In this document: positions 6,295 to 8,492 of the stretch, piece after piece | Numbering within the stretch: the first letter of the stretch is position 1 | Layout of the letters: each line of letters begins with the position of its first letter | Assembly: GCA_009886625.1 (NCBI GenBank) | Contig: QXZA01000023.1 | Span: 138,345-202,344 of the forward strand | Length of the DNA stretch: 64,000 nucleotides | From: Flavobacteriaceae bacterium | Lineage (GTDB): Bacteria > Bacteroidota > Bacteroidia > Flavobacteriales > Flavobacteriaceae | Direction of reading: 5' to 3' | Program-made: the position numbers and the translations under genes | The notes under the pieces: model-generated | Databases searched by the model: none | The model's input: only the letters and a program-made list of their open reading frames with translations | Told to the model about the DNA's origin: nothing

Positions 6295-6837
6295 ATGAAA
6301 AAACAAATCTTACTTGTGGTAGCGGTTCTGGCTTCCACTCTTTCTTCATCCCAACAAATCCAATGGATGTCATTGGAAGAAGCTATAGCAGCACAAAAAA
6401 TCACTCCTAAAAAGATCTTTATGGATGTCTATACAGATTGGTGTGGCCCCTGTAAATTATTGGATAAAAGAACCTTTCAAAACCCAGATGTTTCAAAGTA
6501 TATCAGCGAACATTATTATGCTGTAAAGTTTAATGCTGAGGGTCAAGAAGAGATTAATTTTTTTAATCAGACCTATACTAATCCCAGCTACGATCCTAAC
6601 AGAAAGGGTAGAAATGGGACTCATCAGTTTACTCAATATTTAGGAGTAAAAGGGTATCCTACCATGGTGTTTTTCAGTGAAAATGGTGCCCCTATCATGC
6701 CAGTAGTGGGATACCTCAAACCACAACAGCTCGAGTTATATCTTAAAATGATCAAGCAGGGAGACTATCAGGTTTTTTCAAAACCTGAGGACTTTGAAAA
6801 ATATCAAAAGAGCTTTATCTCTCGTTTTCGAGGTTGA
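6295..6837 (+). CDS. Exported thioredoxin-family protein
   Basis: A 180-residue protein with an N-terminal signal peptide (about residues 1-20) and one thioredoxin domain. The redox motif WCGPC has cysteines at 50 and 53, and the cis-proline loop appears as KGYPTMVFF. It should act on periplasmic disulfides, either as a reductant or in maturation of exported proteins. It is the third gene of the peptidase-transporter operon, 13 bases after the transporter. Its last 23 bases overlap the ancestral 3' end of the decayed comEC on the other strand. Confidence 0.88.
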   Translation: MKKQILLVVAVLASTLSSSQQIQWMSLEEAIAAQKITPKKIFMDVYTDWCGPCKLLDKRTFQNPDVSKYISEHYYAVKFNAEGQEEINFFNQTYTNPSYDPNRKGRNGTHQFTQYLGVKGYPTMVFFSENGAPIMPVVGYLKPQQLELYLKMIKQGDYQVFSKPEDFEKYQKSFISRFRG

Positions 6838-7327
6838 TTTTTAATGCTCCGTTTTTTCTAATATCATAAAAACACACATTATATTTTTTACAGGTTTTTT
6901 TCCCATCGTGCTGAAAACCATGGATCATTTGACCCATCCGCAATAAGCAGTTTGGACTTATATTCGTCCAATAATAATTCTAAATTTACTTTGACATTAT
7001 TTTGTAGCAAGATATGGATTGGGGTAAGTTGTTTGATTTCTATTCTTTTTAAAGCATCTGCATCATGAAGTGTATAATGTTGATAATGTGTTTTGGGTAA
7101 CCGATAATATTCTTGGAAATGAATGTATCCTAAGAGCAAAAAACTGAAATAGAGGACACTACTTTTTAATAGTTTGGTACGTTTCTCTTTCAGAAGAAAA
7201 CAGAAAATTAAAGTAAAGCCTAATGAAGAGAATAAAGGAATAGAAGTGATTTCAAAATAAAAAAAAACACACCTCCTAGGGTAAAAAGAATAACTAATGG
7301 ATAAATAATAGATTTGGGCAAATACAT
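6815..7327 (-). pseudogene. comEC: Remnant of comEC (DNA uptake channel) with large internal deletion
   Basis: Reading the minus strand from an ATG at 7327 gives a membrane N-terminus like that of ComEC, then a frame change in a 9-base A/T run at 7259-7267, then the DUF4131-like start (LLLGYIHFQEYYRLPKTHY). Around 7000-7030 this runs straight into a ComEC C-terminal tail (KSKLLIADGSN, then ARW). A second frame change in the A run near 6897-6903 restores a longer tail ending at 6815-6817. The central competence and metallo-beta-lactamase parts, over 400 residues in intact homologues, are missing. The position next to lpxB and surE matches the usual flavobacterial location of comEC. Recognition is from memory of the family. 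Confidence 0.75.
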
Positions 7328-7370: not shown

Positions 7371-8492
7371 TTAAATTTTGTCTTTTGCGATAGCATTAAA
7401 AATTAACTGAGCAGTTTTGTTACTCGCCCCTCCATTACCGAGGATAGATTTTAATTCTTTGTAGTCTTGTTTTAGTTTCTTTTGTTGAGTAGGGTTCAAA
7501 AGTAAATGAAGATGAGTGCGCAAATTGGACAAATTAAGAGCATCTTGGATAAGCTCTTTTACAACAAGACGATCTAAGATTAAATTAACTAAAGAGATAT
7601 AATTTAGTTTCACAATTTTCTTGGCAATCCAATAGCTAAATGCGCTACTGCGATAACACACCAATTGTGGTACATCAAACAAAGCTGTTTCTAAAGTAGC
7701 TGTTCCGCTTGTGACCAATGCTGCACTAGAGTGTTGCAAGAGGCTATAAGTCGCATTGTGAATTATTTTGAGAGAGGAATTTTTGATATAAGGCGCATAA
7801 CTTTCTATGGACAATCCGGGAGCCGCTGCAATCACAAATTGGTAATCAGAAAAGTGCCTTGCAACTTCAATAAAAAGAGGCAGCATTTTTTTTATTTCTT
7901 GTAAGCGACTTCCTGGGAGAAGTGCTATGATAGGTTTTTTAGATTCTAATTTATGCTCAATATGGAATGAAGCTTTTTTTGGATAATTAGGGATATGGTC
8001 CAGCAAAGGATGCCCTACAAAATGAACATCGAAATTGTGTTTCTTTTCAAAAAAACCTTTCTCAAAGGGAAGAATCACATATAATACATCTAAGTATTGC
8101 TTCATTTTATTCACCCGATTTTCTTTCCAAGCCCATACTTGAGGACTGATATAGTAATGGTTTTTAAACCCCGCTTCTTTAGCCCATTTTGCTATTCTTA
8201 GGTTAAATCCTGGATAGTCTATATAGATGATCACATCAGGGTTGAAAGTAAGAATATCTTTTTTGCAGCGACTAATGTTCTTTAGAATAGTGGGCAAATG
8301 AGAAATGACTTCCCAAAACCCCATGAAAGCTAATTCACTGTAATGTTTTACAATAGTTGCACCTTCTTTTTCCATCAAGTCTCCTCCCCAAGCACGAAAA
8401 TGAGCATTTGAATCAATTTTTTTTAGAGCTTTGATTAAATGAGCACCATGTAAATCTCCTGAGGCTTCACCAGAAATAAGATAATAATTCAC
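7371..8492 (-). CDS. lpxB: Lipid-A-disaccharide synthase
   Basis: A 373-residue GT19 glycosyltransferase that joins UDP-2,3-diacylglucosamine and lipid X to form the lipid A disaccharide at the inner face of the inner membrane. The N-terminus shows the LpxB signature GEASGDLHGA (residues 7-16). Further family blocks are YYISPQVWAWKENR, the LLPGSRLQEI loop and the donor-binding segment SGTATLETAL near the C-terminus. The length is normal. It is co-transcribed with a small membrane protein and surE, and shows that the organism makes lipid A. Confidence 0.95.
   Translation of the reverse strand: MNYYLISGEASGDLHGAHLIKALKKIDSNAHFRAWGGDLMEKEGATIVKHYSELAFMGFWEVISHLPTILKNISRCKKDILTFNPDVIIYIDYPGFNLRIAKWAKEAGFKNHYYISPQVWAWKENRVNKMKQYLDVLYVILPFEKGFFEKKHNFDVHFVGHPLLDHIPNYPKKASFHIEHKLESKKPIIALLPGSRLQEIKKMLPLFIEVARHFSDYQFVIAAAPGLSIESYAPYIKNSSLKIIHNATYSLLQHSSAALVTSGTATLETALFDVPQLVCYRSSAFSYWIAKKIVKLNYISLVNLILDRLVVKELIQDALNLSNLRTHLHLLLNPTQQKKLKQDYKELKSILGNGGASNKTAQLIFNAIAKDKI

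What the first reader, a model, noticed from the sequence alone, without database searches (positions are those of the whole stretch)
6815..7327. comEC reduced to a 0.5-kb scar: probable loss of natural competence
The minus strand holds the N-terminal and C-terminal ends of a ComEC-like protein fused across a large internal deletion, with two additional homopolymer frame shifts, in the usual comEC place beside lpxB and surE. The channel and nuclease-like parts are gone. The organism has probably lost DNA uptake by this route.
Basis: partly seen in the sequence, partly recalled or inferred. Interest (0 to 1): 0.7.

Follow-up and report, generated by a model that had tools for sequence, protein, structure and literature searches.

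The report
Decayed DNA-uptake gene, marine flavobacterium
A small ocean bacterium has lost the gene for its DNA-import channel, four other genes that serve DNA uptake are broken or not found, and the same loss appears to have happened many times among its close relatives.

Summary
Confirmed and widened. Window 6815-7327 (minus strand) is what is left of comEC: the start and end of the gene joined across a deletion of about 1.5 kb, with two frame changes at homopolymers. It lies between lpxB and a thioredoxin-like gene, where congeners carry a 2.0-kb comEC. No other ComEC was found in the 91.65%-complete genome. Four partners went the same way: dprA and comF are frameshifted at their own sites, a ComEA-like helix-hairpin-helix (HHH) gene is a remnant at a contig start, and comM is not found. 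The genus matches the marine NS5 group MS024-2A. Of 38 species genomes, 4 keep all assessed genes open, 15 are mixed, and 19 show no near-full copy of any of the five. If loss is irreversible, comEC was physically lost at least 11 times. No loss clade of the four partners contains a genome with near-full comEC. Control: 1 of 173 near-full neighbour-gene copies is broken, against 23 of 64 competence-gene copies. Loss of a Riemerella-like transformation pathway is the best reading; phenotype is untested. An outer-membrane gene pair known from Riemerella was detected in 3 of 38 genomes only and may go first.

The parts
6815..7327 (-). comEC pseudogene (scar), start codon to stop codon
7034..7327 (-). 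N-terminal part of comEC (about the first 98 codons)
6815..7038 (-). C-terminal part of comEC (from about residue 600 of the 673-aa G007 protein)
7034..7038 (-). deletion junction; 5 bp (AATCA) match both sides; about 1.5 kb of the G007 gene missing
7259..7267 (-). T9 run where the N-terminal frame changes
6895..6904 (-). GGGAAAAAAA run where the frame changes back (one extra base in the alignment to G007 and G024)
6295..6837 (+). thioredoxin-like gene, convergent neighbour, open frame, overlaps the 3' end of the scar
   Evidence: open frame

Best explanation
The scar is the remains of a comEC gene lost by an internal deletion of about 1.5 kb, probably between short direct repeats, plus small indels. 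It is one visible part of the decay of a Riemerella-like natural-transformation pathway in this lineage: dprA, comF and a ComEA-like HHH gene are broken at their own sites and comM is not found. In the genus MS024-2A this has happened repeatedly. comEC (or an outer-membrane receptor pair before it) tends to go first, after which the partners lose their use and decay by frameshift, stop and deletion. Shown: the sequence states, the synteny, repeated losses (given irreversible loss) and the nesting of partner deletions inside comEC losses. Inferred: that the ancestor was transformable, that this cell is not, the order of loss, and that selection relaxed on the pathway as a unit.
For: Scar anatomy and site. 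No other PF03772 in G000. The same lpxB-thioredoxin gap holds near-full comEC in 11 of 36 located sites and none in 25, of which 23 have both flanks on one contig. G000 partners: dprA in two frames plus a stop; comF in three frames, between the same two neighbour genes as in G024 and G012; HHH remnant in two frames at the start of contig C19; comM without a full match. Genus pattern for dprA, comF, HHH and comM. Control for error: 1 of 173 near-full flanking-gene copies broken against 23 of 64 competence copies, Fisher p 5e-14. Irreversible-loss count: 11 comEC, 5-6 dprA, 6-7 comF, 6-7 HHH, 9-10 comM. All 6, 7, 7 and 9 partner loss clades on the careful tree hold no genome with near-full comEC; random placement by branch length gives P 0.066, 0.039, 0.054, 0.053. 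In R. anatipestifer, ComEC, DprA, ComF and an HHH protein are essential for transformation and mutants of the ComM-like YifB are strongly reduced (PMC8459023: abstract, sections 19 and 20, and passages).
Against: Single-gene nesting P values straddle 0.05. Independent-pairs tests are weak: with near-full coding the partners never go the other way, but median p is 0.25 dprA, 0.0625 comF, 0.125 HHH, 0.016 comM; with strict intact coding of the partner dprA is 3.5 pairs for and 1.3 against (p 0.63), HHH 5.2 and 2.0 (p 0.45), comF p 0.031, comM p 0.0625. G012 and G013 carry a disrupted dprA beside an open comEC, so comEC is not always hit first. States were coded by hand. MAG gaps could hide comM or comF in single genomes (19 genomes without any gene are 54-89% complete). 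Flavobacterium johnsoniae has DprA, ComEC and ComM homologues yet was not transformable as tested (PMC7965970 passages), so genes alone do not prove that the ancestor was competent. Orthology of the HHH gene to RA0C_RS02645 was not tested.
Confidence: 0.88

Rival explanations
1. Assembly or consensus errors of a metagenome-derived genome imitate broken genes.
For: Several genomes show one frame change in one gene (for example G012 dprA, G027 comEC), which an error could give. The lpxB copies of G006 and G034 show a stop each.
Against: Flanking genes in the same stretches are broken in 1 of 173 near-full copies (G006 lpxB; the G034 stop lies so near an end that 90% stays open) against 23 of 64. 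The G000 scar lacks about 1.5 kb inside a contig of at least 202 kb, and 23 species lack near-full comEC with both flanks on one contig.
Confidence: 0.03
2. The scar still makes a useful short membrane protein from its 152-codon open stretch.
For: The stretch has no stop; a TTG start gives 83 aa.
Against: The pieces on both sides of the deletion share the old coding frame, so an open stretch is expected. No Pfam model reaches its cut-off and no NCBIfam model matches. Other species keep different ends or nothing at this site.
Confidence: 0.04
3. comEC was lost but DNA uptake continues by another channel.
For: The assembly is 91.65% complete, so a gene could be missed.
Against: dprA, comF and the HHH gene, which act around any such channel, are broken too and comM is not found.
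Confidence: 0.04
4. Genome streamlining in general removed these genes, with no specific change in selection on DNA uptake.
For: Genomes are small, about 2.1-2.2 Mb corrected for completeness.
Against: Corrected size does not differ between species with near-full comEC (median 2.18 Mb, n=11) and without (2.15 Mb, n=25; p 0.62, from rounded sizes). Five genes at separate places go together.
Confidence: 0.1

Closest known systems
Natural transformation pathway of Riemerella anatipestifer (transposon screen, PMC8459023)
   Same: The same kinds of gene occur in congeners: ComEC, DprA, ComF, an HHH protein, YifB/ComM. G013 also has a CarboxypepD_reg-like protein followed by a DUF5689 protein with weak DUF5017 similarity, the RS04915-RS04920 kind of arrangement; G019 and G012 have homologues of both.
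   Different: In the window's species the five genes are broken or not found. The outer-membrane pair is detected in 3 of 38 species only. Homology to the Riemerella proteins themselves was not tested by sequence.
Repeated loss of transformability within species (Legionella pneumophila, Acinetobacter baumannii; PMC11472951, passages)
   Same: Frequent non-transformability; competence genes searched there as missing or pseudogenes.
   Different: There across strains and tied to conflicts with mobile elements. Here across species of one uncultured genus; at the one locus read base by base in scars (comEC) the damage is deletion and frameshift, with foreign-looking sequence only in G034.

Membership tests
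ComEC/Rec2 family (scar as a member) | Competence (PF03772) channel domain | tested here: not met
   deleted in the window; present in G007 and G033
ComEC/Rec2 family (scar as a member) | N-terminal DUF4131 region | tested here: inconclusive
   partial, 14.8 bits against a cut-off of 31.6
ComEC/Rec2 family (scar as a member) | alignment to both ends of congener ComEC at the syntenic site | tested here: met
ComEC/Rec2 family (scar as a member) | single open reading frame | tested here: not met
   two frame changes
Riemerella-like transformation pathway (genus) | ComEC, DprA, ComF, HHH protein and ComM together | tested here: met
   all five open in G007, G019 and G033; G036 likewise with HHH cut by a contig end
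Riemerella-like transformation pathway (genus) | outer-membrane CarboxypepD_reg protein next to DUF5689 protein | tested here: inconclusive
   3 of 38 genomes; undamaged in G013, a stop in the larger gene of G019, both genes in two frames in G012
Riemerella-like transformation pathway (genus) | DUF1343 protein (RS09020) and RecA | not tested
   no search made
Riemerella-like transformation pathway (genus) | measured natural transformation | not testable with these tools
   no phenotype available
Riemerella-like transformation pathway (genus) | HHH gene orthologous to RA0C_RS02645 | not tested
   Riemerella sequence not fetched; the G024 gene matches TIGR01259 comE (3e-17, below cut-off) and TIGR00426 (above cut-off; G012's is below), and ComEA chain 8dfk (3e-4)

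The most novel reading that the evidence does not exclude
The genus records the order in which a transformation machine falls apart. The outer-membrane DNA-receptor pair goes first (detected in 3 of 38, only in genomes with an open comEC, and damaged in 2 of those 3), then comEC and comM, then dprA, comF and the ComEA-like gene. Species such as G007 and G033, which keep the five inner genes open with no outer pair detected, either use an unknown outer-membrane route or have lost uptake very recently. Co-loss across the 38 genomes could then name the missing parts of flavobacterial DNA uptake.
Probability: 0.3. Interest if true: 0.75.

Novelty: new member of a known kind. Interest (0 to 1): 0.55.

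Why it matters
Why bacteria keep or drop natural transformation is an old open question, and how DNA crosses the outer membrane in Flavobacteriaceae is not settled. A genus with at least 11 inferred comEC losses at all stages, in uncultured marine bacteria, gives replicated natural experiments: recombination rates, gene content and co-lost genes can be compared between sister species with and without the pathway. That deletions of dprA, comF, the HHH gene and comM fall inside comEC losses suggests that in this group these genes serve DNA uptake and little else.

Tried and rejected
DUF5689 as part of the five-gene pattern: found in 3 of 38 only, so treated as a separate lead. Genome-size streamlining: no size difference. 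Phage collection search with the scar: no match.

dN/dS by YN00 failed or was saturated for most of 11 pairs. Where it ran: G007-G026 comEC 0.24, dprA 0.20, HHH 0.22 against 0.03-0.10 for five flanking genes; G021-G022 comF 0.16 against 0.07-0.11 (two flanking genes); G005-G017 comEC 0.24 (65 codons), comF 0.14 against 0.02-0.07; G003-G034 HHH 0.14, dprA 0.07 against 0.01-0.11, that is, no relaxation seen in that dprA; G000-G024 comF 0.22, HHH 0.40 (65 codons) with no flanking gene estimable. Mostly in favour of relaxation, not conclusive.

Papers: searches; no listed title or abstract start describes competence-gene loss in MS024-2A, and the words competence and comEC do not occur in the main text of PMC9122927, PMC2668756 or PMC4164334. 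Subscription papers are not in that library.

Absence there is by search alone.

Rows dropped: one search left out copies cut by a contig edge (1 lpxB, 1 comEC). Searches left out as unknown G014, G025 (comEC), G002, G011, G028 (dprA), G002, G015, G029, G036 (HHH), G013, G022, G023 (comM). comM full-length includes G012 and G024, which hold a TGA inside.

Full report
WHAT IS THERE. The window lies at G000:C16:138345-202344 of a 1.91-Mb, 91.65%-complete genome in 30 contigs. On the minus strand an ATG at 7327 starts a ComEC-like reading that ends in a stop at 6815, exactly the coordinates given. It sits between lpxB (7371-8492) and a convergent thioredoxin-like gene (6295-6837) whose 3' end it overlaps. 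Against congener G007's 673-aa ComEC the scar keeps about residues 1-98 and 600-673; about 1.5 kb are missing and both sides match the same 5 bp, AATCA. The frame changes at T9 and changes back at GGGAAAAAAA. The two middle pieces share a frame, hence a 152-codon stretch without stops.

NO SPARE COPY. PF03772 gives 0 matches in G000. In 60 relatives it gives 31 (30 over cut-off): 12 of 36 congeners, one of them weak (G001), and 19 of 23 members of other families of the order.

THE SAME SITE IN THE GENUS. lpxB was found in 36 of 38 genus genomes and the thioredoxin-like gene in 37 of 38 (the G014 hit is weak and not the neighbour), so the site was examined in 36. Near-full comEC lies there in 11: six open (G007, G012, G013, G019, G033, G036) and five disrupted (G003, G022, G024, G026, G027). 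It is absent or a scar in 25, with both flanks on one contig in 23 (all but G023 and G034). Gap lengths run from about 2.0 kb through 501 (G000), 458 (G005), 325 (G021) and 199 bp (G017) to a few bases or an overlap of the two flanking frames. Remnants differ: G021 keeps both ends with a 9-bp overlap at the junction against G022; G005 and G017 keep N-terminal pieces of different length.

WHICH ORGANISM. PMC9122927 (passages) places the GTDB genus MS024-2A, with Fram Strait MAGs, in the NS5 marine group.

PARTNERS. dprA (PF02481) matches in 20 of 38 genomes, one of them (G060) only a weak hit. Its site between a SPOR-type gene (name recalled) and trpS (name recalled) was seen in 35: near-full in 19 (8 disrupted), and in 16 only about 61-167 bp are left. 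comF (TIGR00201, all below its curated cut-off) has near-full copies in 18, 6 of them disrupted; in G000 it lies in three frames. The HHH gene (about 275 aa; PF12836; comEA models) is near-full in 17 of 35 sites seen, 5 disrupted. G036 shows only its end at a contig start. In G000, and in 6 of the 16 sites without a gene (G004, G011, G016, G020, G031, G035), short C-terminal remnants persist, the latter with E-values from 1e-5 to 0.03. comM (TIGR00368) is matched over its full length in 10: open in G003, G007, G017, G019, G027, G033, G036 and, in two pieces at contig ends, G026; with a TGA inside in G012 and G024. It is cut by contig ends in 3 (G013, G022, G023; G022 also has a TGA), broken in G005, and without such a match in 24 including G000.

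In all, 4 genomes keep every assessed gene open (G007, G019, G033, G036). Fifteen are mixed (G000, G003, G005, G012, G013, G014, G017, G021, G022, G023, G024, G026, G027, G032, G034). Nineteen have no near-full copy of any of the five; among these the comEC site was seen in 18, dprA in 16 and HHH in 16.

IS IT ERROR? In the same stretches, five flanking genes were broken in 1 of 173 near-full copies against 23 of 64 for four competence genes (two copies cut by contig edges left out; reference copies count as unbroken, among them G024 dprA, whose N-terminal frame changes).

HOW OFTEN. On a 5-gene tree of 38 genomes (careful: 25 of 35 inner branches starred; an outgroup-rooted quick tree), irreversible loss gives 11 physical comEC losses on both trees, 5-6 for dprA, 6-7 for comF, 6-7 for HHH and 9-10 for comM. 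Unordered parsimony gives 9 changes for near-full comEC. Every loss clade of the four partners (6, 7, 7, 9) holds no genome with near-full comEC (comEC of G014 and G025 is unknown). Random placement by branch length gives P 0.066, 0.039, 0.054 and 0.053; their product, about 7e-6 by hand, is the chance if all four were lost independently of comEC and of each other. Independent pairs of sister lineages (near-full coding) never go against the association, but are few: p 0.25, 0.0625, 0.125 and 0.016.

ORDER. Seven genomes lack near-full comEC but keep dprA near-full (G000, G005, G017, G021, G023, G032, G034); none shows the reverse. That is 6 lineages if G005 and G017 count once, and comEC is also the longest gene; G012 and G013 have a disrupted dprA beside an open comEC. 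comEC-first is favoured, not proven.

OUTER MEMBRANE. In R. anatipestifer two further essential genes, RS04915 (CarboxypepD_reg, predicted outer membrane) and RS04920 (DUF5689 + DUF5017), are predicted to form an operon (PMC8459023, section 19). DUF5689 is found in G012, G013 and G019 only. In G013 it follows a 913-aa protein with a CarboxypepD_reg-like domain (30.3 bits, below the cut-off of 32.2; DUF5017 likewise below cut-off). G019's larger gene holds a stop and its two pieces gave no Pfam hit, but it aligns to G013's at 48%; G012's pair is in two frames each and reaches the contig end. G007, G033, G036 and G024 gave no DUF5689 match though 89-98% complete. This is a lead, not a result.

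READING. Riemerella genetics (ComEC, DprA, ComF and an HHH protein essential, YifB mutants strongly reduced) makes loss of transformation the natural reading. Against easy inference, Flavobacterium johnsoniae has ComEC, DprA and ComM homologues yet did not transform as tested (PMC7965970 passages). Loss of competence is known elsewhere (PMC11472951 passages). New here, as far as the searches named show, is its replication within one uncultured marine genus and the five-gene snapshot. Caveats: MAGs, hand-coded states, no phenotype.

Noticed in passing
L241:1951-6017 (G013), L242:1980-6191 (G019), L240:4430-7432 (G012): Pair of an outer-membrane-like CarboxypepD_reg protein (913 aa in G013) and a DUF5689 protein, as in Riemerella's transformation operon; detected in 3 of 38 genomes, all with open comEC, undamaged only in G013.
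   Followed up: partly
L053 (G034:C69), after lpxB: The comEC N-terminal remnant (about 190 bp) is followed by unrelated sequence that reads like a repeat-containing tail-fibre or surface protein on the other strand (judged by eye, not searched); insertion or chimeric contig.
   Followed up: partly
L126 (G013:C78:800-4600): A second, diverged acyl-CoA dehydrogenase (75% to the query) with a broken HHH gene beside it; paralogue, strain mixture or contamination (3% estimated).
   Followed up: no
L065 (G001:C2:507531-507947): A weak Competence-domain match (22 bits, below cut-off) with four stops, on another contig than the lpxB site; possible old remnant or chance.
   Followed up: no
G041 and G054 (family f6 of the order): No Competence domain in either of two 1.5-Mb genomes at 86-88% completeness: perhaps another small-genome family without comEC.
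   Followed up: no
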